36,998 nucleotides of DNA from Candidatus Beckwithbacteria bacterium GW2011_GWC1_49_16 (lineage in GTDB: Bacteria > Patescibacteriota > Microgenomatia > UBA1400 > CG1-02-47-37). The translations under genes and the position numbers were made by a program. Below are positions 1,859 through 34,384 of this stretch, piece after piece (position 1 is the first letter of the stretch; each line of letters opens with the position of its first letter). The DNA is taken from NCBI GenBank assembly GCA_001029675.1, contig CP011210.1:1012891-1049888 (forward strand). Direction: 5' to 3'. The notes beneath the pieces were generated by a model. It worked only from the letters and a program-made list of their open reading frames with translations, did not search any database and was not told the origin of the DNA.

Positions 1859-2553
1859 AGTTTTTTATTGCCCTCATCTTCGGAAACGGCGGCTTCGATG
1901 ATGGGAGCGTCGTAGCCGGCTTTGTCGGCAAAGTCTGCCGACCCGGCGTCGGGGTTGTAGTAGCCAAAAAGGAGTTTGATTAGCTCCGGGGTGGTTAGTT
2001 GTTTGGCTTTTAGCCCCAAGCGGGTCAATTGGCCGACCAGGTGGTCTCTTTTGGGCACCAGAGCGGTGGCGGCTTTTTGGATGATGTAGTCTTTGTCAAA
2101 GGGGAGGCCTTTTGATTTTCTGACTACAGAAGAAAGGGTGGAGCTGACGCCCAGTTCCAAAGCCGAAAAAGGGATGACGATGTAGAATTTTTTATCCAAA
2201 ACGTCGTTTTCCTTAACGGTTTGGGTGATAAAGTCGCGGTATTTTACCAGCTGGCCTTTGAGTAACGGGTTTTTGATTTTTTGCTCCTGGGTGTTTAAAA
2301 GGGCCAGATAGCTTTGGATGTTTTTTTTCTGGGAGTGGATTAAGATTTGTACCGGAAAAGTCAACGAGTTTAACATTCCGGCATAAGCGTAGATGGTGGC
2401 GTCTTGTTCGCCTTCGGACAGAAGCGAAAAGTTGACGGCGGTGGTTTGAAGAATTAGGCAACAAGAGCCGTCTTTTAAAATCACCAGGTCGTTTCTGATG
2501 TCCTCGATGTCGAGGTGGTCTTGGGTGCTGGCTTTGATGGGGGCAGGGGGCAT
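1855..2553 (-). CDS. TraC/VirB4 N-terminal-domain-like protein without ATPase domain
   Basis: A 232-residue protein with no Walker motif and no membrane segment. Its order of segments (DLVILKDGSCCLIL, then NFSLLSEGEQDATIYAYAGMLNSL, then FPVQILIHSQKKNIQSYL) resembles the N-terminal domain of TraC/VirB4 ATPases, which docks the ATPase to the inner-membrane complex. It lies between the PrgI-type gene (1-nt gap) and the VirB4 ATPase (4-nt ATGA overlap), so it is almost certainly co-translated with both. I infer that it acts as a docking or regulatory partner of the VirB4 ATPase. The resemblance is by eye only. The downstream ATPase keeps its own N-terminal region, so this is a separate paralogous domain rather than a simple frameshift split. 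Confidence 0.75.
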   Translation of the reverse strand: MPPAPIKASTQDHLDIEDIRNDLVILKDGSCCLILQTTAVNFSLLSEGEQDATIYAYAGMLNSLTFPVQILIHSQKKNIQSYLALLNTQEQKIKNPLLKGQLVKYRDFITQTVKENDVLDKKFYIVIPFSALELGVSSTLSSVVRKSKGLPFDKDYIIQKAATALVPKRDHLVGQLTRLGLKAKQLTTPELIKLLFGYYNPDAGSADFADKAGYDAPIIEAAVSEDEGNKKL

Positions 2554-2554: not shown

Positions 2555-3730
2555 TTATTGGGCTTGAATTTTTAATGGCGGTATTACTTCGCCTTTGGCT
2601 TCGAGTTTGATTATAGCAAAGGCGTGGTCAGGGTGGTCGGCCTCGATCTGGTAGATGCCGTCGGGTAAGGGGGTGGCGATAAAAAATTGGCCGAGCTTAT
2701 TTGATTTTAGAGCCCGGACGGGGTGACCCTGGTTGTCTTTTATTTCCAAAATGACGTTGGGGGCGATTTTGCCAAGTTTGTCTAAAGTGACACCGGCCAG
2801 CAGGTTGGGTTTTTCCGGGGTTTGGGGCAGGATGACGTCTTTGGCAAAAGTAGGAGTAGTGGTGGGTTGAGGTTGCGGCGCTGGTCCCGACCCGACTGTA
2901 GTCGTGGCCGTGGATCCTCGGTCCGGCTTCTGCCGAGACCGGGGAGGGTTTTTAGCCGGAAGTTTTTTAACAGGTTTAGCTGGTTTGGCGGGAGCCGCCG
3001 CCGTGGAAGCGGTAGGGGGTTTGGTGGTTGCTGGGGGCGGAGGAATTGGAGTGGGGGCCCCGACGTTGCGGTCGGGGTAAACAGGCATGGCGGCCGTTTT
3101 TGGCTCGGCGGGGGCCTGGTAAAGGCTGGCGTGGGGTAGTAGGCACATTTGCGGGTGCAAAAGCTTTCGGACTCGAACGCCTTTAAGGCCGGGTTTGACC
3201 GGAGTTTGGGGTTGGCCGGGGTGGCTCGGTTCTGCCGGCGACGATGGCGGCAGGCCCAGGGCGCCAAACAAACTGGCGATGTGTTGGAGGTACTTTTTTT
3301 CGGCTTGTTCGAAGCTGGTTTCCGGAGTTTGGGGCAGGGTTTTTAAGTATTCAGCTAGTTTTTCCGGGTGGCCGCGTAAAGTCCCAGTGTCTACTGGGAC
3401 ACGCGGTAAACCCTTACTTGGGGCAAAGAAGTCGAGTTTTTTGGGTTTTTGGCGCCATAAGTATTGGGTGGGGGCGTAGATGGAGCGGAAGAAGTTAATA
3501 ATCCACTGGTCAAGCGGCCGGTCTTCGATAGGTAAAAAAGCCAGGGCAAAGCCAAAAAAGGCTAAGATCGGTCCCAAGGTCCAGCGGAGAAGCAGGTTCC
3601 AGCTGGAGTTGAAAACAAGGTAGGCAGTAACGACGCCGGAAGCCAGCTCCAAAAACTGCTTCAAGGTCATGTCACCTACCAACCGGAATTGGTAGGTGGT
3701 GATGTTTTGGGGGACGGGGTGTTGTTCCAT
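2555..3730 (-). CDS. PrgI-family T4SS membrane protein with C-terminal carboxypeptidase-regulatory-like domain
   Basis: The N-terminus (MEQHPVPQNITTYQFRLVGD) and the two membrane helices at about residues 28-70 match the PrgI family, a VirB3-like component usually encoded beside VirB4. Residues about 165-300 are a Pro/Ala/Lys-rich linker. The last 85 or so residues (GVTLDKLGKIAPNVILEIKDNQG, ending with LPDGIYQIEADHPDH) look like a carboxypeptidase-regulatory beta-sandwich domain, here predicted on the cytoplasmic side or exposed depending on topology. I chose the ATG at 3730 rather than 3739: the 3739 ATG overlaps a TATAAT box, and the conserved family N-terminus begins at 3730. The linker contains three dispersed or palindromic repeats (2907-2946, 3058-3082, 3372-3406). 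It is the first gene of the PrgI-TraC-VirB4 operon. Confidence 0.85.
   Translation of the reverse strand: MEQHPVPQNITTYQFRLVGDMTLKQFLELASGVVTAYLVFNSSWNLLLRWTLGPILAFFGFALAFLPIEDRPLDQWIINFFRSIYAPTQYLWRQKPKKLDFFAPSKGLPRVPVDTGTLRGHPEKLAEYLKTLPQTPETSFEQAEKKYLQHIASLFGALGLPPSSPAEPSHPGQPQTPVKPGLKGVRVRKLLHPQMCLLPHASLYQAPAEPKTAAMPVYPDRNVGAPTPIPPPPATTKPPTASTAAAPAKPAKPVKKLPAKNPPRSRQKPDRGSTATTTVGSGPAPQPQPTTTPTFAKDVILPQTPEKPNLLAGVTLDKLGKIAPNVILEIKDNQGHPVRALKSNKLGQFFIATPLPDGIYQIEADHPDHAFAIIKLEAKGEVIPPLKIQAQ
2907..2946. repeat. 40-bp palindromic element in the PrgI-family gene
   Basis: Second copy of the element at 1770-1809. Encodes RSRQKPDRGSTA in the Pro-rich linker. Stem CGGTC/GACCG with inner GGC/GCC. 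Confidence 0.85.
3058..3082. repeat. 25-bp palindromic repeat, copy in the PrgI-family gene
   Basis: Stem CCCCGAC/GTCGGGG with a 6-nt loop. It is an inverted copy of 22588-22612. Here it encodes VYPDRNVGA, a different peptide from the copy in the Clp gene because orientation and frame differ. Confidence 0.75.
3372..3406. repeat. 14-bp-stem hairpin in the PrgI-family gene
   Basis: GTCCCAGT/ACTGGGAC (3381-3400) with a 4-nt loop, extended by CCGCGT (3372-3377) and ACGCGG (3401-3406) after a 3-base bulge. It encodes PRVPVDTGTLRG. No partner copy seen in the window. Confidence 0.8.
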
Positions 3731-3737
3731 TAGAGTC

Positions 3738-3767
3738 ATTATAGAGTTGATTAAGGGAAGATGACAA
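3738..3767 (-). promoter_or_regulatory. Promoter of the PrgI-TraC-VirB4 operon, predicted leaderless
   Basis: On the minus strand TTGTCA (3767-3762) is followed after 18 nt by a perfect TATAAT (3743-3738). The start codon at 3730 lies only 7 nt past the -10 box, so transcription would begin at or next to the ATG. No ribosome-binding site is present. Confidence 0.65.
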
Positions 3768-5257: not shown

Positions 5258-5265
5258 AAATTAAT

Positions 5266-11634: not shown

Positions 11635-11635
11635 A

Positions 11636-13105
11636 ATGGCGGAAGATATAGGAGCAAGAATAGAGGGCGAGGGTGGGTGGGGAGAAAAACCATTGCAGCC
11701 GATTAATTTGTCTAGGATAGACGTGAGCGAATTTCGGGATTTAGGTTTAGGCGATGAGGGTGAGGTTGGTGAGGGCAGCCTAGAGATGATTAGGCCCGGG
11801 GAGGTGATTGATGAGGCAGTTGAAACTGTAAAAGATGCCTTGAAGACCAAAAAGGCCACCGTTGGTCAGTTAAAATCAATGGTTCCGCTTATGGCTCAAG
11901 TTTTTTTACAAGAAGGTGGTAATTCATCTTCTTGGAGCGAACCAAAATCAAGCGAGGAGTTTGTGCCGTGGGTGTTGATGGCGGCGGCGGGGATCGGTTT
12001 GGCTTTGGCGTTGTGGAAAAAAGATGAGATTGGACAGTTTATGAATAAACTAAGTCAGAGGGGGGCGATAAAAGAACTAAAAAGAGCGGGCCTAGAAGAG
12101 ATTGCGGGAGGACCGGCTGGTCGAGTTGAAATTCAAGAACCGGCGGGGTTGGAAACTAAAGAAGAGAAAGCGCGAAAAAAGAAAGAAAAAAGAAAGAAAA
12201 GGGTAAAAGCGATAAAGAAAGCGACACGACAGGCGATGATTCTTATTACAATAGCAGGCAGCGTGGGGGGCGCATTCTGGTTAGGAGTAGATAAGGTTAT
12301 GGGGATGATTGATGTTTGGAACGAAGTTAACCCTGTTAGGGAGCAAGCAGTGGAAGAAGGGTTGATCTCCGGCATTCCCGGGGTGGACGAGATTAGCCCC
12401 CAAGCTACAGGGGAGATGATTCAAAAAAGTCTCGAGATGAGAAAAATGCTGGCTTATTATGATGATTATAGCGAGCCCTCGACGTGGGGAGGAGAAATGG
12501 CGTGGGGGGTAAATAAAAGCGAACCGCTTTTAAAACTGGAAAATATCGATGACGAGAAAACCCAACAGTTTTCTGCCTGGAAAGGGGCGAGTTGGATTTT
12601 TGGGGTTTATACCGAAGGCTATTTGTCGGAACCAAACCCTTTACTGGTTGACTATTGGTCTGAGCAGTGGCAGCTTAGTGCGATTGAGAGGTTTGATTTG
12701 GAAAATAGCTGGTTAGAATTTAGCCGAGACCGAAAGGCAGCCTATGGTTACTTAGAGGAGTTGAATATAAAAAACAGGCTTGGCGATAAAGGCGAGGAGA
12801 TAATTAAATTTTATAGCGAGGCCAACAGGTTGTTTGAGGTTTATCCGGGAGAAGCCGGCTGGGAACAAAGATGGCAAGCTTTGAAAGCATGGGTGGAACA
12901 GCAAAAACAGACAGAGCCAACTCCGACAGCAGAGGCTTCGACAGGAGAAACTGTCTCTTTGTCCAGGATGCTGGCGTTGGCGGGGTTGGCTCACATGGGA
13001 GGAACCAGGAGGGATTTTTTAAATGGGTTGACGTTGTTGGTAGGAGCGGCGGCGCTAGGGCCGTTGGGGAAAACACAGATAAAGGCTGACGAAGAAGAGA
13101 TTTAA
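11636..13105 (+). CDS. Unrecognised two-helix membrane protein with C-terminal twin-arginine-like hydrophobic tail
   Basis: Not recognised. With the start at 11636 (MAEDIGARI, 1 nt after the giant gene's stop) the product has 489 residues. An ATG at 11603 would overlap the giant gene by 32 nt and is less likely. Residues about 108-127 (FVPWVLMAAAGIGLALAL) and 199-220 (AMILITIAGSVGGAFWLGV) are membrane helices. A very basic stretch (KKKEKRKKRVKAIKK) precedes the second helix and should stay in the cytoplasm. The segment after helix 2 is Trp/Glu-rich. The last 35 residues contain TRRDFLNGLTLLVGAAALG, which resembles a Tat signal (RR at 458-459) but sits at the wrong end of the protein. Its stop overlaps the convergent VirB6-like gene by 4 nt. 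It probably works with the two genes before it. Confidence 0.7.
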   Translation: MAEDIGARIEGEGGWGEKPLQPINLSRIDVSEFRDLGLGDEGEVGEGSLEMIRPGEVIDEAVETVKDALKTKKATVGQLKSMVPLMAQVFLQEGGNSSSWSEPKSSEEFVPWVLMAAAGIGLALALWKKDEIGQFMNKLSQRGAIKELKRAGLEEIAGGPAGRVEIQEPAGLETKEEKARKKKEKRKKRVKAIKKATRQAMILITIAGSVGGAFWLGVDKVMGMIDVWNEVNPVREQAVEEGLISGIPGVDEISPQATGEMIQKSLEMRKMLAYYDDYSEPSTWGGEMAWGVNKSEPLLKLENIDDEKTQQFSAWKGASWIFGVYTEGYLSEPNPLLVDYWSEQWQLSAIERFDLENSWLEFSRDRKAAYGYLEELNIKNRLGDKGEEIIKFYSEANRLFEVYPGEAGWEQRWQALKAWVEQQKQTEPTPTAEASTGETVSLSRMLALAGLAHMGGTRRDFLNGLTLLVGAAALGPLGKTQIKADEEEI

Positions 13106-14505
13106 CCCAAGAGGCTGCCGATAATAGGAATTTTTCGCAGAGTGCCGGAAACATCGGGTGCGGCGGCGCTGGTGATGCCGGCTTTAACGCTTAAGAGTTG
13201 GTCGAGAGCCTGGGGGATTTGGGCGGAGGCCATGAGGATGCCTAGGCCGATAAGTGGCTCGAGAACTCTTGGGTCGGCAGTAGTAATGACTTGGGCTGAC
13301 CCAGGAGCAAGAACGCCAGTCTTATTTAATGGAGGAAGGCTCGGGAGGTTTAAGCCGATATTAGAATCGACAATATAGGCGGCCAAATAGAACATAAAAG
13401 CCATGGCTGGGAAAGTAAGGGCGGCAGAAAGCATTTGCCGGAAAAAGTTACTGACTACTTCTTGGCGACCCGGAATGGCAGAAAAAAGAAAGACAAAAGG
13501 AGAAAAGATGGTTTGAAGAATTAGGGTGACGTATTTAGTAATCAGGGCAAAGAAGATTTTGATGCCGGTGCCAAGAAGCGTAAAGGCAAAAATCAAGGGA
13601 ATAATTTTGTCGGTGATGGTTAAAGTGGTCTTGGCGCACTTACTGCCCGGAAGTTTATTTATTCCAGGTATTTCACAAATAAGTGCAAAAAGGGTTCTAC
13701 CCAGACCACCGATAAACTCGCCCAATTTGTTAATAACGCCTGCTCCGCCAAAACTCCTTCCGGTTAAAAGGTCACCGACAAAGTCAAGGGTATAAGGATC
13801 TGGATTGGGATCAAGTTGGTTTAAAGGAAATTCTTTATAGTAGATGGTGTTGATTAGGTTGTGACCAAGATAAACCGTGTCGATAATCAGGCCGGCAATG
13901 GCAAAGCTAAAGGTGACTAAAATGAGCCCAACGACGATTCGGGGTAGGGCGAGTTGGACATTGATGACGGTTTGAGGGTTTAAGCGGGTGCGGAACATGA
14001 TCATCAAGCCGATAACCACTAAAACGACTACAAACAAAAGATAGGCGACGTTGCGGCTGATAGTCCAGAGTTCAAGGATGGCCTGGTCAGAGTCACCGGT
14101 GAGAAACTTACTGCCTTCACCGATGGCAATGGCCGGTTTGGCTATGCCGGCATTTTTTCTTAAGTAGGCTAAATAGTCCAGAGAAGATAGGGGGCGTTGG
14201 TCGTAGAGTTTGGCAATGAGGCTGGCTGTTACGCCAGTGGCCCCCCCGGCGATGGGGTTGCCGTTTTCGTCATAAGCGCCAACAATGGCAACGTTAAGCG
14301 AATCCATTAAGATGGGGATCATGCCCGAGCTGCCGTTGGGGGTGAGCTTGCCTGCCATAAAGCTTTCCAGGTTCATTTCCGGCGAGGTGACGGCCTGGAT
14401 GAAAGTATCGGAGGAGGGGGCAGTTTGGGCGTGAACCGCGACCGTAAAGCGTAAGCCATAAACCGCAATCAGCAAAACCAAGAAAAATTTGAGCAGGCGG
14501 GACAT
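13102..14505 (-). CDS. VirB6/TrbL-like T4SS polytopic membrane protein
   Basis: A 467-residue protein with a signal peptide (MSRLLKFFLVLLIAVYGLRF, cleavage likely after VHA-Q at about 26-27) and an exported N-terminal segment of about 120 residues. It then has at least five or six hydrophobic helices: about 152-171, 188-214, around 290-325 (PLIFAFTLLGTGIKIFFALI) and near 370-395 (MLSAALTFPAMAFMFYLAAY). This arrangement and the flexible loops fit VirB6/TrbL inner-membrane channel proteins of type IV secretion systems. It lies 18 nt downstream of the 1,239-residue membrane protein and is probably co-transcribed with it. The signal peptide contains a 7-bp-period repeat (14442-14462). Family recognition rests on topology and locus, not on a strong motif. 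Confidence 0.75.
   Translation of the reverse strand: MSRLLKFFLVLLIAVYGLRFTVAVHAQTAPSSDTFIQAVTSPEMNLESFMAGKLTPNGSSGMIPILMDSLNVAIVGAYDENGNPIAGGATGVTASLIAKLYDQRPLSSLDYLAYLRKNAGIAKPAIAIGEGSKFLTGDSDQAILELWTISRNVAYLLFVVVLVVIGLMIMFRTRLNPQTVINVQLALPRIVVGLILVTFSFAIAGLIIDTVYLGHNLINTIYYKEFPLNQLDPNPDPYTLDFVGDLLTGRSFGGAGVINKLGEFIGGLGRTLFALICEIPGINKLPGSKCAKTTLTITDKIIPLIFAFTLLGTGIKIFFALITKYVTLILQTIFSPFVFLFSAIPGRQEVVSNFFRQMLSAALTFPAMAFMFYLAAYIVDSNIGLNLPSLPPLNKTGVLAPGSAQVITTADPRVLEPLIGLGILMASAQIPQALDQLLSVKAGITSAAAPDVSGTLRKIPIIGSLLG
14442..14462. repeat. 7-bp-period repeat in the VirB6-like signal peptide
   Basis: Three related 7-mers (CCGTAAA, GCGTAAG, CCATAAA) encode YGLRFTV at the end of the signal peptide hydrophobic core. 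Confidence 0.5.
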
Positions 14506-19972: not shown

Positions 19973-19983
19973 GAGTTTGTCAA
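19956..19983 (-). promoter_or_regulatory. Promoter of the Fic gene, predicted leaderless
   Basis: Consensus TTGACA (19983-19978), 16-nt spacer, TATCAT (19961-19956), then 7 nt to the ATG at 19948. Transcription should start at or beside the start codon. Confidence 0.65.
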
Positions 19984-19992
19984 GGACTAGGA

Positions 19993-20598: not shown

Positions 20599-22814
<2,216 letters not shown>

Positions 22815-22815
<1 letters not shown>

Positions 22816-23123: not shown

Positions 23124-24173
23124 CTAGGGGGTGGCGGGGAGATAGGCGGTGATTTCGGCTGTGTTACCAGTTTCTAGCTGGGCGGTGCCGGTGAGCTGAA
23201 AGACGGGTAAAAGCATCCCTTGATTGGCTTGGGCTTGGTAGCCGAGGTTTAGGTGTTGGTAATCAGCGGAGGTAACTTTAGTAGCGGTGGTAGGATAGGC
23301 GCGGGGGCCGGTTTTTAATAAAGTGACGGTGGGGAGGCCGGCTTGAATGTCTTGACTAACTTGGTCGGCGGTTTTTAAAGGATAGGTAGTGGTTTTGAGT
23401 TCGCCCGGATTGGTTAGGTAAGTAGAGTAAAGCAGGGCGGGGAGTTGATAGTCAACGATAAAGATGTTGCCGGCGCTGGTGACGGAAATAGCGATGGGAG
23501 CGTTATCGAGGTTGGTAGAAAAAAGCGGCAGGCGGTTTAAGGTGGGGAAAAAGGAAAATTGGTAAGTGTCGGCAAGAGCAGGATCAGCGACCGGTTCTAG
23601 CTGACCTTCATGGCTTTGGTAGTAGCTGGTTTGGTGGGGCGTATCTTGATCCATCAGGCGGTGGTCGGCCAGCCAAGTTTTGGCTATGGTGAGAGCATCT
23701 GGTTCTATCACCGGAGTAGAGTCGGAAAATTCAGAGGCAGAGACTTTTATGTAAAACTGGCCGGTTTGGAGATTGAGGCTTAGGGTGCTGGTGCCTTTTT
23801 TCCAGACAAGGTGGGGAACGGAGTTAAAAACCATTTCCTGGGGGGGTTCGATAAAGTTTAAGCTTTGGGCCATGGGGTTAAAAAAGTTTTGCAGGTCGAG
23901 GGAGGAGGCAGAATGTTGATAGACGGCGATGCTGGTTTGATCGCTTGGCGGGGGAGCTTGAAGTTGGTTTTGCCCAGGGCGAGAGAATTGATAAATGGGG
24001 TTATATGATGGTGGTGGCAGAAGTCCTTGTTGACTGGGTTTGGATTGGCGCAGGGCCGGAAGCAAAATAACCAAGGCTATCAGGAGAACTCCCAAACCGA
24101 TACCGAGGGCGGTTTTGGGTTTGGCTTTGAGCCAAGAGGTAAGCTGGTTCATGGTGTCAGATAATTTTAGCAT
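23124..24173 (-). CDS. Membrane-anchored exported protein, unknown function
   Basis: Not recognised. The product has 349 residues from the ATG at 24173; this ATG overlaps the upstream gene's stop as TGATG, which favours it over the ATG at 24182. One N-terminal membrane helix (about residues 22-42, ALGIGLGVLLIALVILLPAL) follows a positively charged start, so the rest is outside the membrane. The exported part begins with a Pro/Gln-rich spacer and continues as a mixed beta-rich domain (QTSYYQSHEGQLEPVADPA, then RLPLFSTNLDNAPIAISVTS). Translational coupling to the M23 peptidase suggests both act together at the cell wall or in the secretion machine. No enzyme motif seen. Confidence 0.7.
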   Translation of the reverse strand: MLKLSDTMNQLTSWLKAKPKTALGIGLGVLLIALVILLPALRQSKPSQQGLLPPPSYNPIYQFSRPGQNQLQAPPPSDQTSIAVYQHSASSLDLQNFFNPMAQSLNFIEPPQEMVFNSVPHLVWKKGTSTLSLNLQTGQFYIKVSASEFSDSTPVIEPDALTIAKTWLADHRLMDQDTPHQTSYYQSHEGQLEPVADPALADTYQFSFFPTLNRLPLFSTNLDNAPIAISVTSAGNIFIVDYQLPALLYSTYLTNPGELKTTTYPLKTADQVSQDIQAGLPTVTLLKTGPRAYPTTATKVTSADYQHLNLGYQAQANQGMLLPVFQLTGTAQLETGNTAEITAYLPATP

Positions 24174-26560
24174 CAGTTGCATAAGGGTTCTCCGGTGTTA
24201 CAGGAGCAGCCTGGGATGGCGGCGCAAGGGTCGGCGGTCAAGCCAGAGTAGTAGAAGTTGTAATAAGCACCGCCTTGGGATAGGCCGAGGTGGAGGTGAG
24301 ATTCAGAGCTTTGACCAGTATTGTCTTGGATGCCGACTTGGGTGGCGGTATCGACCTGCTGGCCGACGCTGACAAACTGGCCGTCGGAGAAGCTGTCCAT
24401 GTGGCCATAGAGGGTAAACGAGCCGTTGCAGTGGTCGATGATGACGCAGGCGCCAAAGTCGCCGCAGCCATTGGGCGAGCCATTGGTATAGTAGATTTGC
24501 CCGGAGCCGGCGGCGTAGACAGGTAAGGTGAAGGGAACATTGTCTTTAGCGTTGGGGCCACCCGGGTCCATGTCCAGGCCGCCGTGGCAGTAGGCACCGC
24601 GTTCTTCTTTATAGCAGGAGGTAAGGTAGGCGTTGTCGACGTCAAAAGCGTAGGGCCAGTCGAGCCAGGTTCCTGACGGGTTGGGGCCGCCGCTGCAGGT
24701 GGGCGGAGTCGGGCTGCCTCCGCCTGGAGGCGGGCTGCCTCCGCCAGGCGGAGAAGAGGCGCCAGGAGTTTGGGCCAAATCGCCGGCGGTGCCAAAGCCG
24801 CACTGGTCGCTGAAGGGTTGATAGGCTTGGCCGGTAACGAAGGGTTGGAGTTTAGCCAGGATGCGTTCCTTTTGGCAATGAATGTAGCCTAAGTATTTGT
24901 AGTAGAATTTGGCTGGTTTGGGCGGTTCGCGGTAGCCGGCTTCGGCCCTGCCGGGGGTAAAGTCATACTCAATGTTGGTTTCGGTGGGGTTGCCGACTCC
25001 AAGCCAGTTTTCCGGAGGCGGGTTGTCTTCAAGTAAAGGTTTAAAGATGCCAAAAAGAGCTCCGGGGCCGGTAACTAAGCGAGTCATGAGAGTGTCTAGA
25101 AACGGGGTGTAGGTTTTAAAGTAAGTCGGATCATAGCGGAGGTCTTGTTTGATAAGGCAACCGGTGTAGTCAATGCCGGCGATTCCTGCTATTGGGTTGA
25201 CGCACCTTTCGCACGAGTAGAGGTCACCGCAGGCAGAAGGTTGACTAGCCGGGCCGACGTATTCGGGGTTATCAATAGTTTTATACACCAGAGTGGTGAC
25301 GACGTCTTCTTGGGCAAAGTCACCCGACGAGGGGATTTGGGTATTGCCGGGATCGCAGACCGGGCCGAGGCCATCCCATTGAGACTGGTTTTCATCGGAA
25401 ATGATCCACCAGGGTTCCTCTGATTTAAGATACCAAGGGGCGGGGGTGAACCACTGGTCTGCCAGTTGGGGATCTTGGTCGTAATCGTGGGTTTCTTGAG
25501 GAGAAAGTAAAAAAGCCAAGGAGCTGCCGACTTCATAAGCGCGGGACAGATGAGGAAAAATTACGTCCTTGGTGTCGGCGTTGCTGATCTGACCCGGTTC
25601 GTCGATGACCTCGATGAAGCCCTTGGTGTCTTCGCGGGTAAACATGGGTACATACTCCCAGAGTTTAAACCATTTGCCGTTGTCTTTTTGCTGCCACTCG
25701 GCAGAGGCAGAGGCGTAGGCTTGAGCCGTGTCAAACTCTTCCGGCAATGGCGCCCAGTTTTTGTCATAGTCGTTGAGATAAATTTCTTGCCCGGCGCCGT
25801 AAGGAGCAACCTCGTTATTAACAGGGTTCCAATAACCGACTAAGTAGTCGTGGACTTCTTGGGTAGCGGGCTCAAAGCCGTAGGGGTTGTCGTTCAAGTC
25901 AAATTGGCCGGTGGCGCGTTTAATCAGGGCGCGGCGGAGGCGGTCTTGATAGGTTTTGGGGGCAAGCTCTCTGAAGACTCCTAAACGGGAAGGGATAAAG
26001 GCATTATAGATAGTGTTAAGAATGGGGTTGCCGGGGACGATGGGGTATTGTTGGCGCTGAAAATCTTCCTGAAAAGCGGGGTCGGCAGGGTCTTCGGCAA
26101 ACTCTTCATAGTAGGCGCGGCCTTCAAAGTAGTCAAGAAGATAGCGTCTGATTTTTTCGTCGTTGGGTAGAGTAAAGTCGTACTTGCTGTCGTCGGTGAT
26201 CGATAAAAGCGGAGTGACAAAACTTTGAAAGTTAGAAACGAGGATGCCGGCGGCGGTGAGCTTTTGGCTGCGGCGATCGACGACGTTAAAAGTTGGGGGG
26301 CGACCGACGACGGCGTTTACCGGCGGCGGCTGGACGATAGTCGGGCGTTGGGCGCAGTAGAGAGTCAGCGTGGGGTCGTCGATGGTTTTGGCTTCTTCTT
26401 CGGCAACCAACTCGAATGGGTTGGGCCGAAGAGGGTGGGGGTTTTGAGATGGGGTTTGGGCGGAGACGGAGCCACTAAAAACCAAAAACAAAAGACCAAA
26501 TAAAAATAGTATTGTGGGTATCAGCCAGAGGCTGATCGTCCTGTGGACGAGGCGGGACAT
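24173..26560 (-). CDS. Secreted M23 (LytM-type) peptidoglycan endopeptidase with large N-terminal region
   Basis: Zinc peptidase domain at the C-terminus (about residues 640-795 of 795). Metal ligands are visible in HGGLDMD (H at about 659) and HLHLGL (about 755), with the usual YGHMDSF between them. Such enzymes cut peptide cross-links in peptidoglycan; in a T4SS locus they can replace the VirB1 lytic transglycosylase in opening the wall. The N-terminus has a signal peptide (ISLWLIPTILFLFGLLFLVF, cut after VSA-Q). About 600 residues with many Trp and Tyr and some cysteines follow, with no recognised domain. A Pro/Gly linker (SPPGGGSPPPGGGSPTPP) encoded by DNA repeats precedes the peptidase domain. 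The start at 26560 (MSRLVHRT) is preferred to 26599, which would overlap the previous gene. Confidence 0.88.
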   Translation of the reverse strand: MSRLVHRTISLWLIPTILFLFGLLFLVFSGSVSAQTPSQNPHPLRPNPFELVAEEEAKTIDDPTLTLYCAQRPTIVQPPPVNAVVGRPPTFNVVDRRSQKLTAAGILVSNFQSFVTPLLSITDDSKYDFTLPNDEKIRRYLLDYFEGRAYYEEFAEDPADPAFQEDFQRQQYPIVPGNPILNTIYNAFIPSRLGVFRELAPKTYQDRLRRALIKRATGQFDLNDNPYGFEPATQEVHDYLVGYWNPVNNEVAPYGAGQEIYLNDYDKNWAPLPEEFDTAQAYASASAEWQQKDNGKWFKLWEYVPMFTREDTKGFIEVIDEPGQISNADTKDVIFPHLSRAYEVGSSLAFLLSPQETHDYDQDPQLADQWFTPAPWYLKSEEPWWIISDENQSQWDGLGPVCDPGNTQIPSSGDFAQEDVVTTLVYKTIDNPEYVGPASQPSACGDLYSCERCVNPIAGIAGIDYTGCLIKQDLRYDPTYFKTYTPFLDTLMTRLVTGPGALFGIFKPLLEDNPPPENWLGVGNPTETNIEYDFTPGRAEAGYREPPKPAKFYYKYLGYIHCQKERILAKLQPFVTGQAYQPFSDQCGFGTAGDLAQTPGASSPPGGGSPPPGGGSPTPPTCSGGPNPSGTWLDWPYAFDVDNAYLTSCYKEERGAYCHGGLDMDPGGPNAKDNVPFTLPVYAAGSGQIYYTNGSPNGCGDFGACVIIDHCNGSFTLYGHMDSFSDGQFVSVGQQVDTATQVGIQDNTGQSSESHLHLGLSQGGAYYNFYYSGLTADPCAAIPGCSCNTGEPLCN
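24711..24752. repeat. Tandem GC-rich repeat with hairpins in the M23 gene linker
   Basis: Two 21-bp units that start GGGCTGCCTCCGCC (24711 and 24732). The second contains a perfect CTCCGCC/GGCGGAG hairpin with a one-base loop. It encodes the Pro/Gly linker before the peptidase domain. Confidence 0.7.
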
Positions 26561-26582: not shown

Positions 26583-26975
26583 TTATTGGGGAACGGCAAA
26601 CTGTAATAGGTCCAGGCCAGTGATGGTGTTTAAAAGCCTAAAGATAAACCAGACGCCGACGGTGGCGGCAATTCCGATGATAGCGCCGGTGATGATTGAT
26701 TGAGCTTTTTGAGTTTGTTTGGGGTCGCCGGCGGAAGTTAAGTATTGAAAACCCCCGACGATCAAAACGACAAAGGCGGCGACTCCGGCCAGGGGGATGA
26801 TAAGGCGGAGGAGGTTGGCGACGATTTGCTCAAAACATTGAAGAGTAGCAGCGCCTTGCTCGATACAATCTTGAGGCCAAGGTTCGGTTTGGGCGTGGGC
26901 CGCAGTAGCGGCAGATCGTAGATAGTAGATCGTCGACAGTAGAAAGAAGAGAAGTTTTTGGGGGCGTTTGGGCAT
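26583..26975 (-). CDS. T4SS pilin-like (VirB2/TrbC-type) protein with signal peptide
   Basis: A 130-residue small membrane protein, last of the nine-gene pilin-like array. It carries a true signal peptide (cleavage after AHA-Q), a short exported segment with two cysteines (DCIEQGAATLQC), helix 1 (LLRLIIPLAGVAAFVVLIVGG), the array's shared loop motif (FQYLTSAGDPKQTQKAQ) and helix 2 (GAIIGIAATVGVWFIFRLL). This two-helix hairpin with a polar loop is the VirB2/TrbC pilin layout. Stop to the M23 start: 22 nt. The signal peptide DNA holds a 7-bp-period repeat (26911-26936). It is one of the more likely major subunits because it has both a signal peptide and possible disulfide cysteines. Confidence 0.82.
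   Translation of the reverse strand: MPKRPQKLLFFLLSTIYYLRSAATAAHAQTEPWPQDCIEQGAATLQCFEQIVANLLRLIIPLAGVAAFVVLIVGGFQYLTSAGDPKQTQKAQSIITGAIIGIAATVGVWFIFRLLNTITGLDLLQFAVPQ
26911..26936. repeat. 7-bp-period repeat in a pilin-like signal peptide
   Basis: Three related 7-mers (TCGTAGA, TAGTAGA, TCGTCGA on the plus strand) encode STIYYLRS of the signal peptide. Related to the thiolase repeat at 33472-33499. Confidence 0.55.
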
Positions 26976-26978
26976 GGG

Positions 26979-27308
26979 CTAGCCGCCGGCAGAGGGGATG
27001 TTGAAGGAGAAGACATCAATGCCGAAAAAGAAGCCGATGACTTTCATCAGGGCCCAGGCGGCGGCGACGATGCCTAAACCCACCAAGGCCATGGTGATGC
27101 GGTCACGGGCTGCCTGGGTTTGTTGTTTGTCGCCTCCGGACAGAATCCACTGGATGCCGCCCCAAACCAGGAAAGCAAAGGTTAAAATGGCGGCGATGAT
27201 CATAGCCACTTGGATTAAGCCGGAAAGGAGTTTGCTGATGTCCTTGATACCGGTGGGGGGTTCCTGGATGGTGATGGCTTCCTGGGCGCGGGCGATAAAG
27301 TTAAACAT
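26979..27308 (-). CDS. T4SS pilin-like two-helix protein
   Basis: From the ATG at 27308 the product has 109 residues. The short N-terminus (MFNFIARAQEA) looks like a very short or degenerate signal with an ARA-Q cut site. Helix 1 is VAMIIAAILTFAFLVWGGI, the shared loop is QWILSGGDKQQTQAARDRI, and helix 2 is MALVGLGIVAAAWALMKVIGF. An in-frame ATG at 27344 was rejected because the reading frame above 27311 is occupied by a promoter (TTGACA-N17-CATAAT) that ends 7 nt before 27308; 27311 is a close alternative. A separate promoter inside the array implies that the last two pilin-like genes can be expressed apart from the first seven. Confidence 0.8.
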   Translation of the reverse strand: MFNFIARAQEAITIQEPPTGIKDISKLLSGLIQVAMIIAAILTFAFLVWGGIQWILSGGDKQQTQAARDRITMALVGLGIVAAAWALMKVIGFFFGIDVFSFNIPSAGG

Positions 27309-27315
27309 CATTACT

Positions 27316-27344
27316 ATTATGAAAACGTTGCTCGAGTTTGTCAA
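27316..27344 (-). promoter_or_regulatory. Internal promoter in the pilin-like array, predicted leaderless
   Basis: Consensus TTGACA (27344-27339), 17-nt spacer, CATAAT (27321-27316), 7 nt to the ATG at 27308 (4 nt to the one at 27311). This decides the start of the downstream pilin-like gene. Confidence 0.7.
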
Positions 27345-27367
27345 TCCCGGTGGCCACAGGGATTAGG

Positions 27368-27700
27368 CTAGGGGGAAGGGATGATAAAGTCTAACGGGCC
27401 TTGGGCAGACTCGGATAGGCCTAAGAAAAAGATAATTAGGCGCCAGATGATCCAGACGGCGGCTAAAATGACCAGGCCGAAGGTGGAGCTGGTGATTTTG
27501 GATTTGGCGGATTTGGCGCTTTCTTGGTTGCCGCCGGAGGTAATGAACTCGACGGCGCCCCAAATGAGGTAGAAGAGGGCGGCGATGGAACCGACGAAAA
27601 GGGCGACTTGGATGAGGTTTTGGAGGAATTGACCTAAGGAATCGAATTTAAAAAAATTAAAACCTTGGATTTGGTGTCTGATGTTGGTGTTGACTGCCAT
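27368..27700 (-). CDS. T4SS pilin-like two-helix protein
   Basis: A 110-residue protein without a recognisable signal peptide. An amphipathic N-terminus (HQIQGFNFFKFDSLGQFLQN) leads into helix 1 (QVALFVGSIAALFYLIWGAV), the loop motif (EFITSGGNQESAKSAKSKI) and helix 2 (FGLVILAAVWIIWRLIIFFL), with a short acidic/Pro tail. The stop of the preceding array member lies 3 nt upstream, so it is co-transcribed. It shares fold and loop pattern with its neighbours but little exact identity, so the duplication is old. Confidence 0.8.
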   Translation of the reverse strand: MAVNTNIRHQIQGFNFFKFDSLGQFLQNLIQVALFVGSIAALFYLIWGAVEFITSGGNQESAKSAKSKITSSTFGLVILAAVWIIWRLIIFFLGLSESAQGPLDFIIPSP

Positions 27701-27703
27701 AGT

Positions 27704-28012
27704 TTATAGCGTGGGCCAAGGAGGATTTAGTATGTCTAAACCAGTGAAAAGACTGACGAGTTGAATGATAAGATATGAGAGCACCAGGATGGCCAATCCA
27801 AAGATACCGTTGCCCATTTTTTCTTTGGCGCGTTTGAGGCGCTCTTGGTTGGAGCCGGACAAAATCCAGTCGAGAGCCCCCCAGATAAGGTTTAAGAGGA
27901 CGGCGAGCCCGCCGACGATGACTAGAACTTGCCAGATAATGGCTAAATAGCGGGCAAAGGCAACGTCGCCTTGAGTGCCGATTTTGGGGATAGCTTTGTT
28001 GACGATGGCCAT
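27704..28012 (-). CDS. T4SS pilin-like two-helix protein
   Basis: The shortest member (102 residues). The N-terminus has no signal peptide. Helix 1 is IIWQVLVIVGGLAVLLNLIW, the loop is DWILSGSNQERLKRAKEKM, and helix 2 is GIFGLAILVLSYLIIQLVSLF, followed by a TGLDILNPPW tail that also occurs in similar form (TGLDI or GLDLL) in three other members. Upstream is a 28-nt AT-rich gap with TGC-TATATA and TATACT boxes, so a promoter is possible here. It ends 3 nt before the next gene. Confidence 0.8.
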   Translation of the reverse strand: MAIVNKAIPKIGTQGDVAFARYLAIIWQVLVIVGGLAVLLNLIWGALDWILSGSNQERLKRAKEKMGNGIFGLAILVLSYLIIQLVSLFTGLDILNPPWPTL

Positions 28013-28040
28013 GTCTATCTAATAGTATATAGCATTAATT

Positions 28041-28412
28041 TTATTCTGGTTTGAGACTGTTAATCAGCCTTTCAAGGTTGATAATGTCTAGACCGGTGAC
28101 GGCGCTTAAGATAAAGGTGATGGCGTAGGCGGCGACGAGCACGGCCAAGCCGGCGATAGCAGTGCTGATTTGCTTTTTAGCTTTGTCGAGTTGTTCGGGG
28201 TTGCCGGAAGAGGTGACCCAGGTGACGGCGCCGATGACAAACCAGGTTAGAAAAGCCAGGCCGCCAAAAATGGTAAAGACGGTGATGATGTTGCTAATAA
28301 TGGCGGTAAAGCGGTTTTCCGGGTTGGCTCCGGGCGCGGCGGAGAAGCCGGAAAGAAAGCCTTGGATTTGGCCGAGGGTTTGGGCAGAGTCGGCGAGTAG
28401 TTTAGGGTCCAT
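28041..28412 (-). CDS. T4SS pilin-like two-helix protein
   Basis: With the start at 28412 (MDPKLLADSAQ) the product has 123 residues and overlaps the upstream gene by 11 nt; an ATG at 28448 would lengthen the overlap to 47 nt. An N-terminal helix (SAQTLGQIQGFLSGF) precedes helix 1 (IISNIITVFTIFGGLAFLTW), the loop (TWVTSSGNPEQLDKAKKQI) and helix 2 (AIAGLAVLVAAYAITFILSA), ending TGLDIINLERLINSL. No signal peptide. Member five of the array in transcription order. Confidence 0.8.
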   Translation of the reverse strand: MDPKLLADSAQTLGQIQGFLSGFSAAPGANPENRFTAIISNIITVFTIFGGLAFLTWFVIGAVTWVTSSGNPEQLDKAKKQISTAIAGLAVLVAAYAITFILSAVTGLDIINLERLINSLKPE

Positions 28413-28752
28413 AGATAGTGGGCGAGATAATGGCGGTGGCGCTGCCAAAGAATATCAAGCCGATGACGGCAGCGGCAACGGTTGAAGCGGCAATAAGCAG
28501 TAGTCCTAGCATCGAGATCCAGATGCGCGAAGAGGCTTTTTTGGCGACCTCCGGGTTTCCGGCAGAGCCGATATATTGAATACCTGATATGGCGAAGTTA
28601 ATTACGGCCAAAAGCCCGCCGCCATAAATGGCGACCCTGAAAATGTTATTTAGAAGCAGGATGAGACCTTGAGGGTCAGAGCCGTAAGTTTCTACTCCCG
28701 GAGGGGGTTCTAAGTTGGAGCCGAAAAAATCAGAAAGGCCGGGAACGGGCAT
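28402..28752 (-). CDS. T4SS pilin-like two-helix protein
   Basis: A 116-residue protein. The N-terminus (MPVPGLSDFFGSNLEPPPGV) is Pro-rich and lacks a signal peptide. Then come helix 1 (IFRVAIYGGGLLAVINFAI), the loop (QYIGSAGNPEVAKKASSRI) and helix 2 (MLGLLLIAASTVAAAVIGLIF). Its SAGNP loop is closest to that of the member at 29110-29442, and both end in a SPT(I/L) tail after a glycine/serine-rich stretch, so these two may be a paralogous pair. It starts 2 nt after the stop of the preceding gene. Confidence 0.8.
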   Translation of the reverse strand: MPVPGLSDFFGSNLEPPPGVETYGSDPQGLILLLNNIFRVAIYGGGLLAVINFAISGIQYIGSAGNPEVAKKASSRIWISMLGLLLIAASTVAAAVIGLIFFGSATAIISPTIYGP

Positions 28753-28754
28753 AG

Positions 28755-29108
28755 TTAAAAGATTAAGTTATTAATAAATTCGGCGGGCTCGGCAAAGGGA
28801 ATGCCGACGAGTTGGGCTAAAACAAAAGCCATGGGATAGGCTAAGACGGAAACGGTGAGGCCGATTAGGGCGCTGGTGATCATGGCCCGGGCTTTTTGGG
28901 CCTTTTGGGCTTCACCGCCGGCGGTGATCCAGTTGATGGCGCCGAGCATAAAATAAATTAAAAAAACCACCCCGGCTACCAAGGAGATGATACCGATAAG
29001 GTTGGAAAAGATATTAGAAATGTTGCCGGCCAGTCCAGATCCGGAAAAGCTATAGCCTTGGGGGTTTCTCGAGAAAAAATCGCCGATTGATTTGGGTTCT
29101 GAAGCCAT
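28755..29108 (-). CDS. T4SS pilin-like two-helix protein
   Basis: A 117-residue protein. The N-terminus (IGDFFSRNPQGYSFSGSG) is Gly/Ser-rich and polar. Helix 1 (LIGIISLVAGVVFLIYFMLG) is followed by the loop (NWITAGGEAQKAQKARAMI) and helix 2 (ALIGLTVSVLAYPMAFVLAQ). The loop keeps the small-residue pair and the regularly spaced Lys/Ala pattern of the array. It starts 1 nt after the preceding stop and has no signal peptide. Confidence 0.8.
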   Translation of the reverse strand: MASEPKSIGDFFSRNPQGYSFSGSGLAGNISNIFSNLIGIISLVAGVVFLIYFMLGAINWITAGGEAQKAQKARAMITSALIGLTVSVLAYPMAFVLAQLVGIPFAEPAEFINNLIF

Positions 29109-29109
29109 A

Positions 29110-29442
29110 TTATTTTAGCTTGAATAAAGTGGGGCTAAGCAGGCTAGCGGCGTCGCCGTAGAGCACAAAGCCGACCAGGCCGGCAATAATAAAGGCGGCG
29201 GCGATGACCACGAGACCGATAATCGACTGGAGAATTTTGTTGCCGGCGGCGGCCAACCTTTGGGGGTCGCCCGAAGCAGACATATATTGGTAACCGGCGA
29301 TAATGAAGTTGATTAAGGTGAAAATGCCAGCCAAAGTGATGATTAAAGCCACTAAGTTGTTTAGAAATGAAACCAGACCGCCCTCCAGAAGTTTACCGTA
29401 AGGGTTTTGACTGGTCTCGAGTTGACCGACGACGTTTGCCAT
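29110..29442 (-). CDS. T4SS pilin-like two-helix protein
   Basis: A 110-residue protein. A polar start (MANVVGQLETSQNPYGKLLE) leads to helix 1 (LNNLVALIITLAGIFTLINF), the loop (QYMSASGDPQRLAAAGNKI) and helix 2 (SIIGLVVIAAAFIIAGLVGF). It starts 3 nt after the stop of the first array member and ends 1 nt before the next start. No signal peptide. Second in transcription order. Confidence 0.8.
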   Translation of the reverse strand: MANVVGQLETSQNPYGKLLEGGLVSFLNNLVALIITLAGIFTLINFIIAGYQYMSASGDPQRLAAAGNKILQSIIGLVVIAAAFIIAGLVGFVLYGDAASLLSPTLFKLK

Positions 29443-29445
29443 AAG

Positions 29446-29781
29446 TTATAAACCTTGAATTAAGTTGATACCGGTTAAAAATTCGATAATGCGGATGACC
29501 CAAAAGGAGGAAAAAAGAATTAAAAAGCCGATGACGGCAGAGGAGAGGGTTTTGGAGGAGTTTTTTAATTTTTCGGCGTTGCCGGCGTTTAAGATCATTC
29601 CCAGTCCACCGACGACGATAAAGATAAATAAGATGATGCCGGCAATGACAAAAACGTTTCTTAAAACCACAGACAAAACAGCAAACAAGCCCTCCTTGGT
29701 ATAGGCTGTGCCGGCGATAGGGATGGGATTGCCGCCAGGGTCGGTGCCAAGAGAGAATTCGTCCTTGAAGATTACTGGCAT
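29446..29781 (-). CDS. T4SS pilin-like two-helix protein, first of the array
   Basis: From the ATG at 29781 (MPVIFKDEFSLG) the product has 111 residues; an ATG at 29814 would read through the promoter region and is less likely. Helix 1 (VLRNVFVIAGIILFIFIVVGG), loop (GMILNAGNAEKLKNSSKTL), helix 2 (AVIGFLILFSSFWVIRIIEF), and tail TGINLIQGL. It is the most divergent loop of the nine (NAGNAEKL). It lies divergent from the sigma-factor gene with 41 nt between start codons, so the two promoters overlap. Confidence 0.8.
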   Translation of the reverse strand: MPVIFKDEFSLGTDPGGNPIPIAGTAYTKEGLFAVLSVVLRNVFVIAGIILFIFIVVGGLGMILNAGNAEKLKNSSKTLSSAVIGFLILFSSFWVIRIIEFLTGINLIQGL

Positions 29782-29785
29782 AGTA

Positions 29786-29815
29786 AGTATTAGGATAGCA
29801 CAGAAATGGTACAAT
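29786..29815. promoter_or_regulatory. Overlapping divergent promoters of the pilin-like array and the sigma-factor operon
   Basis: Minus strand: TTGTAC (29814-29809), 17 nt, AATACT (29791-29786), 4 nt to the ATG at 29781; alternatively TGC-TATCCT (29797-29792), 10 nt before the ATG. Plus strand: TACAAT (29810-29815), 7 nt before the ATG at 29823, with no good -35 box. The -35 of one and the -10 of the other share bases, so the two promoters may exclude each other. Confidence 0.5.
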
Positions 29816-29822: not shown

Positions 29823-30395
29823 ATGGATAAAAAGGAAGCGAGGCGGTTTTGTTTAGAATGGCGGCCGCGATTGATGAGGTTTGTAGCCCAAAAAGTAGGC
29901 AGGCACGAGGACGTGGAAGAGATAGCCCAGGATACTCTGATGAGCGTTTTGGTAAGTTTGCCCCGGTTTAAGGGAAAAAGCAAGCTGTCCACTTTTGTCT
30001 TTGCCATTGCCCGGCACGAGATCGCCGATTTTTACCGAAAGCAAAAGATTAAAAAAGTGCTGTTTTCTAAACTGCCGTTTTTGAAAGAATTGGTCAGCAA
30101 AGCCTTGGGCCCGGAACTGGCTTTTCAGGAATTGGAGACCAAAAGGCGGATTTTGGCGACTTTGAAAGATATTCGCGAAGGATATGCCCAGGTTTTACGA
30201 CTAAAGTATATGGAGGGACTATCGATGCGCCAGATAGCCGACAGACTAAACATCACGGTTAAGGCGGTAGAGTCGCGACTCACCCGAGCCCGAGCAGCCT
30301 TTCAAGAAGTTTATGGAGATAACGCAAAACTCAAAACGCAAAACTCAAAGTTTTTTGAAGAGATGGAGCCGGATTGGGCTGCTGTTGGCGATTAA
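29823..30395 (+). CDS. Sigma-70 family (ECF-like) RNA polymerase sigma factor
   Basis: A 190-residue protein with region 2 at about residues 25-78 (DVEEIAQDTLMSVLVSLPRF, then FVFAIARHEIADFYRKQK) and region 4 at about 120-168 (YAQVLRLKYMEGLSMRQIA, helix-turn-helix ending AVESRLTRARAAF). There is no region 1 or 3, as in ECF sigma factors. It leads the plus-strand operon, followed by a small membrane protein and then the mevalonate genes. The next gene's membrane helices could make it an anti-sigma factor, but it has no recognisable anti-sigma domain. The C-terminal tail is encoded by a 14-bp tandem repeat (30321-30348), which may extend the protein relative to relatives. Autoregulation or control of the pilin array across the shared promoter region is possible. 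Confidence 0.92.
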   Translation: MDKKEARRFCLEWRPRLMRFVAQKVGRHEDVEEIAQDTLMSVLVSLPRFKGKSKLSTFVFAIARHEIADFYRKQKIKKVLFSKLPFLKELVSKALGPELAFQELETKRRILATLKDIREGYAQVLRLKYMEGLSMRQIADRLNITVKAVESRLTRARAAFQEVYGDNAKLKTQNSKFFEEMEPDWAAVGD

Positions 30396-30705
30396 GGAAA
30401 GCTACTTACTGACCAAAAACGTCTTGGGTCTTTGGTTTCACCCTTATAAAACCTTAAAGCTGATTTTTACTGAAAAAGACCGGTCCCAGCAGCTTTTGGT
30501 TTTGGGGTTGCCGGCTTATCTTTTGGCGGTGGGGACGTTTGTGGTCTGGTTGGGAAGAAGGCTTTGGGCTACCACGCCCGAGTGGGGCCGGCCGGCCAAG
30601 CTGACCGCGGCAGGGGTAATCGGCCTTACTGCCGCTCTGGGAATATATTTGGTTTTCTGGCTGATGGAGATGGTTCGCACCGAGAGGCGCTATGGCAAGT
30701 CTTAA
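30313..30705 (+). CDS. Small membrane protein between sigma factor and HMG-CoA reductase
   Basis: A 130-residue frame from the ATG at 30313, which overlaps the sigma-factor gene by 83 nt. Part of that overlap is the 14-bp tandem repeat, so the true start may be later, for example a TTG at 30385 (11-nt overlap). Two membrane helices are clear: QLLVLGLPAYLLAVGTFVVW and LTAAGVIGLTAALGIYLVFW, preceded by an amphipathic segment (NVLGLWFHPYKTLKLIF). The end overlaps the HMG-CoA reductase start by 14 nt. The family is unrecognised. Position directly after a sigma factor suggests an anti-sigma role, unproven; the HPYKTLKLI segment resembles that of some Yip1-like small membrane proteins only loosely. 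Confidence 0.65.
   Translation: MEITQNSKRKTQSFLKRWSRIGLLLAIKESYLLTKNVLGLWFHPYKTLKLIFTEKDRSQQLLVLGLPAYLLAVGTFVVWLGRRLWATTPEWGRPAKLTAAGVIGLTAALGIYLVFWLMEMVRTERRYGKS
30321..30348. repeat. Tandem 14-bp repeat (7-bp period) at the sigma-factor C-terminus
   Basis: Two identical copies of AACGCAAAACTCAA, each of two related 7-mers. Encodes NAKLKTQNSK in the sigma factor, close to KLETRNSK encoded by the repeat in the mevalonate kinase gene. Confidence 0.75.
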
Positions 30706-31777: not shown

Positions 31778-31778
31778 T

Positions 31779-34269: not shown

Positions 34270-34384
34270 AGTCTTGGCTCGACAGAGGGCACTGCGACGT
34301 GCTCACTCCTCTTCGTTCTATTTTAAATCTTAAAGGTACTCGAGATCTTGCGCGCGACGTTGCCCGTCTGTCTGCGCCAACTAT
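34270..34384. other. Intergenic gap inside the mevalonate operon
   Basis: The only gap over 100 nt in the operon. It has no convincing reading frame; it holds AT-rich ATTTTAAATCTTAAA and palindromic pieces such as CTCGAG and GCGCGC. No terminator with a T-run and no strong promoter. May be a remnant or a repeat copy. Confidence 0.4.

What the first reader, a model, noticed from the sequence alone, without database searches (positions are those of the whole stretch)
26583..29781. Nine tandem pilin-like genes with diverged sequence and one shared loop pattern
Nine consecutive small genes all encode two membrane helices around a polar loop of pattern small-small-x-(S/A)-x-G-(N/D/E), followed by Lys/Ala residues. 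Typical T4SS loci have one VirB2. Only one member, and perhaps the next, carries a signal peptide. The loops differ strongly, so the genes are not recent duplicates. They may make a heteropolymeric pilus, a set of alternative tips, or several membrane-ring subunits.
Basis: partly seen in the sequence, partly recalled or inferred. Interest (0 to 1): 0.65.

Follow-up and report, generated by a model that had tools for sequence, protein, structure and literature searches.

The report
Fixed-order pilin set of a T4SS
Nine different pilin-like genes in a row turn out to be an ancient, fixed-order set found across a whole class of ultrasmall bacteria, with one member carrying its own conserved promoter, which suggests that their type IV secretion apparatus is built from one main subunit and several specialised ones rather than from interchangeable spares.

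Summary
Confirmed: nine tandem genes (26583-29778, minus strand) encode diverged two-helix T4SS_pilin (PF18895) proteins. Such arrays in Patescibacteria were reported in 2025 (PMC12102498) and read there as Bartonella-like versatility. My tests point elsewhere. In relatives the array is a fixed, colinear set of seven slots: HMMs trained without the test family place 189/196 members in the right slot, and 63/65 named arrays are strictly in order. The only two exceptions are close relatives of this genome; like the window, they carry slots 2 and 3 twice as a doublet (nine genes). Two further slots (p1, p2) lie 1.5 kb beyond the window end and are contiguous with the array in other orders; p1 has a signal peptide, a cysteine pair and often a long ectodomain. 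Slot 6 (window W8) is the most conserved and is preceded by a sigma-70 promoter (>=10/12 in 49/79 arrays; 26/395 for the other slots; 5% in shuffles), replicated in other orders (9/18 against 8/100). Best explanation: a heteromeric T4SS pilus or channel with W8 as major subunit and the others as non-redundant minor subunits. Fixed set: about 0.85. Slot 6 as major subunit: about 0.6. Extracellular filament rather than membrane ring: unresolved.

The parts
29446..29778 (-). W1, slot 1 pilin-like hairpin (ORF extends to TTG 29814)
   Evidence: PF18895 28.8 bits; slot HMM s1 88 bits, own family not in training
29110..29442 (-). W2, slot 2
   Evidence: PF18895 44.9 bits; s2 105 bits; clade with L129/L130 W2, SH-aLRT 99
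28755..29108 (-). W3, slot 3
   Evidence: PF18895 25.6 bits, just below cut-off; s3 96 bits
28402..28752 (-). W4, second copy of slot 2
   Evidence: PF18895 17.8 bits, below cut-off; s2 103 bits
28041..28412 (-). W5, second copy of slot 3 (ORF extends to TTG 28448)
   Evidence: PF18895 34 bits; s3 100 bits
27704..28012 (-). W6, slot 4
   Evidence: PF18895 27.7 bits; s4 103 bits
27368..27700 (-). W7, slot 5
   Evidence: PF18895 39.4 bits; s5 100 bits
26979..27311 (-). W8, slot 6, most conserved member, candidate major subunit (ORF extends to TTG 27344)
   Evidence: PF18895 41.5 bits; s6 137 bits; 83% identical to L129 where the other slots are 42-67%
27316..27344 (-). Predicted sigma-70 promoter of W8, TTGACA-17-CATAAT, 11 of 12
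   Evidence: same promoter before slot 6 in 49/79 arrays and before the penultimate gene in 9/18 independent arrays
26583..26975 (-). W9, slot 7, with signal peptide and a Cys pair in the N-tail
   Evidence: PF18895 36 bits; s7 108 bits; Cys pair in 72% of slot-7 proteins
24173..26560 (-). Large secreted M23 peptidase-domain protein directly downstream (VirB1-like role inferred)
   Evidence: PF01551 55 bits; a large protein lies here in most relatives
13102..14505 (-). Polytopic protein g467, candidate diverged VirB6
   Evidence: Best PDB fold matches are TrwI/VirB6 (7o3v, 8rtd), E 0.18, prob 0.90; weak TrbL in 3/37 members
2555..3739 (-). PrgI/VirB3-like
   Evidence: PF12666 26.0 bits, cut-off 27
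1855..2553 (-). TrsD-like (VirB4 N-terminal-like)
   Evidence: NF041427 E 1.7e-5, below cut-off
2..1858 (-). VirB4 ATPase, CD1110 family; only copy in the genome
   Evidence: NF045971 414 bits, cut-off 325; one copy
29823..30395 (+). ECF sigma factor, divergent from W1
   Evidence: TIGR02937 90 bits; upstream of slot 1 in many loci of the order

Best explanation
The array encodes a fixed, non-redundant set of VirB2-like hairpin subunits of the single T4SS of this Patescibacterium (class Microgenomatia). SHOWN by comparison: seven slots of ancient origin keep the same order across the class; slots 2 and 3 were doubled as a doublet in this family; two more slots (p1 with signal peptide, Cys pair and often a long ectodomain; p2) belong to the same ancestral array; slot 6 is the most conserved and has its own conserved promoter-like sequence. 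INFERRED: proteins enter the membrane as hairpins with the Lys/Arg loop inside and both tails outside. W8 is made in excess from its own promoter and is the major subunit. The other slots, read from upstream, are minor subunits with set positions (base, junctions, tip) in one heteromeric pilus or channel, assembled by VirB4 on a VirB6-like platform (g467). p1 and W9, the first and last slots, bear disulfide-capable outer tails and may cap or tip the structure. The machine serves contact with the host cell, as the T4SS pilins of Southlakia epibionticum are essential.
For: Slot identity is predictable across families: 189/196 with the test family left out, chance 14%. The window's nine genes read s1 s2 s3 s2 s3 s4 s5 s6 s7 with HMMs that never saw its family. 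Order is strict in 63/65 named arrays; slot labels need 10 changes on the tree against 81 when shuffled, and adding the window genes adds none. p1 p2 s1 s2 s3 s5 s6 s7 is contiguous in other orders. pN is well below pS in every slot, none decayed. Slot-6 promoter: 49/79 against 26/395 for other slots, Fisher p 5e-27; hexamers 82% but spacers 30-37% identical; replicated on other genomes, 9/18 against 8/100, p 7e-5. Upstream spacing of slot 6 is 196 nt against 91-112 for p2 and slots 1-5. Cys pair in p1 92% and s7 72%, others at most 20%. N-tail negative, loop positive in every slot except p1. VirB4 absent in 6/10 pilin-less genomes and 0/8 others; the complete genome G085 lacks both while same-genus G067 and G099 have both. 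S. epibionticum: pilin series essential by Tn-seq (PMC10633639).
Against: No expression, stoichiometry or structure data. The promoter is a consensus match and is missing in 38% of arrays. A single-chain model cannot show a filament, and PDB searches with W8 gave no significant match. Slots have been gained and lost (s4 missing in Gottesmanbacteria, s2 or s6 doubled elsewhere), so the set is not absolutely rigid. Outside this class the slot HMMs do not discriminate. Four of ten pilin-less genomes still have VirB4.
Confidence: 0.6

Rival explanations
1. The same fixed hetero-oligomeric set, but as a ring or channel in the cytoplasmic membrane of a monoderm cell, with no extracellular filament.
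For: Monoderm T4SSs are generally held to lack pili (PMC12857230, PMC12102498). Hairpins resemble any two-helix membrane protein; F-type ATPase subunit c is among the weak fold matches. Tails of p2 and s1-s7 are short, about 35 residues.
Against: A separate promoter for one slot points to unequal stoichiometry. p1 often has a long ectodomain, up to 908 residues before the hairpin. The family is annotated as pilin and all nine weakly match the mycoplasma ICE pilin-like model NF045849.
Confidence: 0.25
2. Antigenic or host-range variation: interchangeable pilins of which different members are exposed, as proposed for Bartonella trwL and Anaplasma virB2 and, by analogy, for Patescibacteria (PMC12102498).
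For: High divergence within arrays (31%). Tandem pilin copies vary in Bartonella quintana (order L1-L5-L3-L7-L8 in macaque strains, PMC11091102) and Anaplasma phagocytophilum (8-15 copies, PMC3556328).
Against: Those arrays vary in number or order between strains of one species; here order and slot identity hold across a class, with purifying selection on every slot.
Confidence: 0.1
3. Redundant duplicates kept by chance or for gene dosage.
For: Some slots are doubled in some lineages (slots 2 and 3 here; slot 6 in L161, L192, L206).
Against: Seven slots have stayed distinct and ordered across many families; no decayed copies were seen; genomes of about 1 Mb would be expected to shed redundant genes.
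Confidence: 0.03

Closest known systems
VirB2-like pilin arrays of Patescibacteria (Quinonero-Coronel et al. 2025, PMC12102498)
   Same: Same phylum, same Pfam family PF18895, tandem arrays of 2-11 diverged genes linked to an MPF-FATA-type VirB4, abundant in Microgenomatia; this array is one of that kind.
   Different: The passages I read suggest versatility by analogy with Bartonella and Anaplasma; I found no mention there of slot-by-slot orthology, fixed order, a promoter before one slot, or the p1 ectodomain.
Essential pilin series of Southlakia epibionticum (Wang et al. 2023, PMC10633639; six pilins per PMC12857230)
   Same: Several sequence-diverged VirB2-like pilins in a T4SS cluster of an epibiotic Patescibacterium.
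   Different: Other class (Saccharimonadia); I did not map its pilins to these slots, and slot HMMs did not discriminate outside this class.
Mbov_0395 family pilin-like conjugal transfer protein of mycoplasma ICEs (NF045849)
   Same: All nine window proteins match weakly, W2 best at 9e-9, always below the cut-off; the window's VirB4 also matches the mycoplasma ICE VirB4 model NF045975 below cut-off.
   Different: To my knowledge a single-copy gene there; not tested here.
Bartonella trwL and Anaplasma virB2 paralogue arrays
   Same: Tandem VirB2 paralogues in a T4SS locus.
   Different: Copy number or order varies between strains of one species (PMC11091102, PMC3556328); here order is constant across a class.

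Membership tests
PF18895 T4SS_pilin | Score over the curated cut-off of 26.6 bits | tested here: met
   7 of 9 pass; W3 25.6 and W4 17.8 are below, but both group with passing orthologues
PF18895 T4SS_pilin | Two membrane helices joined by a short polar loop | tested here: met
VirB2/TrbC pilin (PF04956) | Score over the curated cut-off of 27.9 bits | tested here: not met
   Best 15.7 bits, W9
Patescibacteria VirB2 array (PMC12102498) | 2-11 tandem pilin genes, low identity, in a genome with a VirB4 | tested here: met
   Nine genes, low within-array identity, VirB4 in the same window
MPF-FATA-type T4SS | VirB4 of a monoderm conjugation family | tested here: met
   NF045971 414 bits over cut-off 325
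MPF-FATA-type T4SS | PrgI/VirB3 and TrsD partners | tested here: inconclusive
   PF12666 26.0 against 27; NF041427 24.7 against 200, right place and size
Conjugative T4SS | Relaxase and VirD4 coupling protein | tested here: not met
   No PF03432 and no PF02534 match in the complete genome; other relaxase and coupling families not searched
Antigenically variable pilin array (Bartonella/Anaplasma type) | Copy number or order varies between close relatives | tested here: not met
   Order constant across families and orders; strains of one species were not available
Extracellular T4SS pilus | Filament made of these proteins | not testable with these tools
   Needs microscopy or proteomics

The most novel reading that the evidence does not exclude
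The Microgenomatia T4SS builds an obligately heteromeric pilus: a major pilin (slot 6) transcribed from its own promoter, five or more minor pilins in set positions, and an ectodomain-bearing hairpin subunit (p1) at the tip as host-binding device. To my knowledge characterised T4SS pili use one main pilin.
Probability: 0.4. Interest if true: 0.8.

Novelty: new variant of a known kind. Interest (0 to 1): 0.6.

Why it matters
[quoted passage not shown] The published suggestion for these arrays is flexible host recognition. A fixed, ordered set with a separately promoted most-conserved member changes the question to how a multi-subunit T4SS is assembled, and names the genes to test: slot 6 as main building block, p1 as tip or adhesin, W9 as signal-peptide-bearing end subunit. 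It also offers a candidate for the VirB6 reported as scarce in Microgenomatia.

Tried and rejected
Recent tandem duplication: rejected, 31% identity and ancient slots. Chance ORFs: rejected, PF18895 matches and conservation in 53/53 order relatives. Decay to one working copy: not seen. Fold comparison of W8 with the PDB and sequence search of solved structures: no significant match, a hairpin is too generic. Slot assignment outside the class: slot HMMs lose discrimination, though arrays within single families there are colinear by reciprocal best hits (L114/L118, L116/L127, L125/L126). A fixed promoter position in those other classes: none seen. dN/dS in numbers: dS is near saturation, so only pN well below pS is claimed; that script stopped on an N in the last L130 gene, after the values used. 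Timing of the slot 2-3 doublet relative to the split from other families is not resolved by the tree. Terminator-like hairpins: no more than in shuffles.

Full report
OBSERVATION. The window is the end of a one-contig 1.05 Mb genome, 99.7% complete. Named relatives with the same array are Microgenomatia such as Beckwithbacteria, Chisholmbacteria and Collierbacteria. Nine consecutive minus-strand ORFs between 26583 and 29778 encode small two-helix proteins. All nine match PF18895 T4SS_pilin, two of them below the curated cut-off. I number them W1 (29446-29778, first transcribed) to W9 (26583-26975). Neighbouring genes overlap slightly or lie a few nt apart (up to 28 nt, or about 56 nt before W8 if it starts at ATG 27311), so they look like one operon followed by a secreted M23-domain protein.

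ALREADY KNOWN. PMC12102498 (2025) reports 441 arrays of 2-11 VirB2-like genes in 383 Patescibacteria assemblies, mean identity within arrays about 25%, and suggests versatility by analogy with Bartonella and Anaplasma. In Southlakia epibionticum the pilin series is essential (PMC10633639; six pilins per PMC12857230). In my samples PF18895 occurs in 53/53 relatives of the order, 103/109 genomes of the class and 187/192 of the phylum, with a median of about 6 hits per genome in the other classes (my hand count's table).

SLOT TEST. I took the array loci of 38 relatives plus the own genome's start and the window. 28 arrays have exactly seven genes. Slot HMMs trained with the test family left out place 189/196 genes in their true position; chance would be 14%. 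Applied to the window, whose family was not in training, they give s1 s2 s3 s2 s3 s4 s5 s6 s7: slots 2 and 3 are present twice as a doublet. The two relatives in the same family (G001, G002) read the same. Loci of named genomes gave 65 arrays with at least five slots; 63 are strictly in order and the two exceptions are L129 and L130, with the same doublet. Some of these named genomes overlap with the training set, so one search is the independent test; Gottesmanbacteria and other orders were not in training. On a tree of 17 seven-gene arrays plus window, L129 and L130, slot labels need 10 changes (minimum 6, shuffled 81), and adding the window genes adds none. Slots s1, s2 and s7 each form one side of a branch; s3-s6 are not fully resolved with so few columns.

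OUTLYING SLOTS. Two further genes, p1 and p2, lie at C1:1552-2060, about 1.5 kb past the window end across the contig junction. In other orders p1 p2 s1 s2 s3 (s4 or s5) s6 s7 is contiguous (L097, L098, L105) and in G005 of the own order too. In the own genome the ECF sigma and mevalonate genes (29823-36997) sit between p2 and s1. p1 differs from the rest: 92% have a Cys pair in the N-tail and 57% have over 100 residues before the hairpin, up to 908. In Woesebacteria-type loci the p1-like hairpin ends the large protein encoded after the array (L149, L170).

SLOT 6. W8 is the most conserved member: 83% identical to L129 where the other eight are 42-67%; between families slot 6 averages 57% against 36-45%. 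Just before its likely ATG (27311) lies TTGACA-17-CATAAT (27344-27316). Over 79 arrays, a match of at least 10/12 precedes slot 6 in 49, against 26/395 for all other slots and about 5% of dinucleotide shuffles; hexamers are 82% identical between loci but spacers only 30-37%. I noticed the window promoter first and then tested the rest, so I repeated the test on 18 arrays of other orders that share no near-identical DNA with the first set: 9/18 before the penultimate gene (slot 6 in the full arrays), 8/100 elsewhere. The stretch from the previous stop to the hairpin is about twice as long for slot 6 as for p2 and slots 1-5 (196 nt against 91-112; slot 7 has 180). In the window the promoter would leave almost no leader before ATG 27311; whether the first or a later start is used is open.

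TOPOLOGY AND CONTEXT. N-tails are on average negative and loops positive in p2 and s1-s7 (p1 loop -0.35), which by the positive-inside rule puts the loop in the cytoplasm and the tails outside, as in VirB2 and TraA (established knowledge). VirB4, TrsD-like and PrgI-like genes lie at 2-3739; VirB4 is the only copy in the genome and no relaxase PF03432 or coupling protein PF02534 was found. g467 (13102-14505) has R388 TrwI/VirB6 chains as six of its nine best PDB fold matches, none significant alone (E 0.18, prob 0.90). Of ten genomes without PF18895 matches six also lack VirB4, against none of eight controls (p 0.013); G085, complete, lacks both while G067 and G099 of its genus have both.

MECHANISM. 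Shown: fixed order, slot identity, purifying selection, slot-specific features, conserved promoter-like site. Inferred: W8 as major subunit, the others as minor subunits with set places, p1 as tip or adhesin, g467 as platform, host contact as purpose. Not decided: filament or membrane ring. The variation reading is disfavoured because arrays that vary do so within a species (Bartonella quintana, PMC11091102; Anaplasma, PMC3556328), whereas here a class keeps one order. I had no strains of one species to test that directly.

Noticed in passing
G000 C1:1552-2060 (L079): Two more T4SS_pilin genes (p1 with signal peptide and Cys-rich N-tail, and p2) lie just past the window end across the contig junction, part of the same ancestral array.
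   Followed up: yes
29823-36997: An ECF sigma gene and a mevalonate-pathway cluster (HMG-CoA reductase and synthase, thiolase, kinases, decarboxylase) sit between p2 and slot 1 in this order, splitting an array that is contiguous in other orders.
   Followed up: partly
13102-14505: Conserved polytopic protein whose best PDB fold matches are TrwI/VirB6: a candidate for the VirB6 reported as scarce in Microgenomatia.
   Followed up: partly
L149 8672-11542, L170 8672-11554, L144 8643-11597: A p1-like pilin hairpin forms the C-terminus of the 956-984 aa protein encoded after the array, as if the hairpin were a docking module for large ectodomains.
   Followed up: partly
3761-13105: Three plus-strand genes (498, 2122 and 500 aa) with no Pfam match interrupt the minus-strand T4SS cluster between g467 and PrgI.
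   Followed up: no
L129 (MHCJ01000008.1): A Chisholmbacteria MAG holds, besides its own seven-gene array, a short contig with a nine-gene array whose W8 is 83-88% identical to the window's; either a mis-binned contig or a second T4SS.
   Followed up: no
L187 (CP011212.1), L160 (JAMWCT010000112.1): Records titled TM6 and Omnitrophota carry Microgenomatia-type arrays; probably misnamed or mis-binned.
   Followed up: no
26583-29814: All nine proteins weakly match the mycoplasma ICE pilin-like model NF045849, which bears on the view that monoderm T4SSs have no VirB2.
   Followed up: no
19007-22815: A Fic-domain protein and a ClpB/ClpC-like AAA protein are encoded within the T4SS stretch between the array and VirB4.
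   Followed up: no
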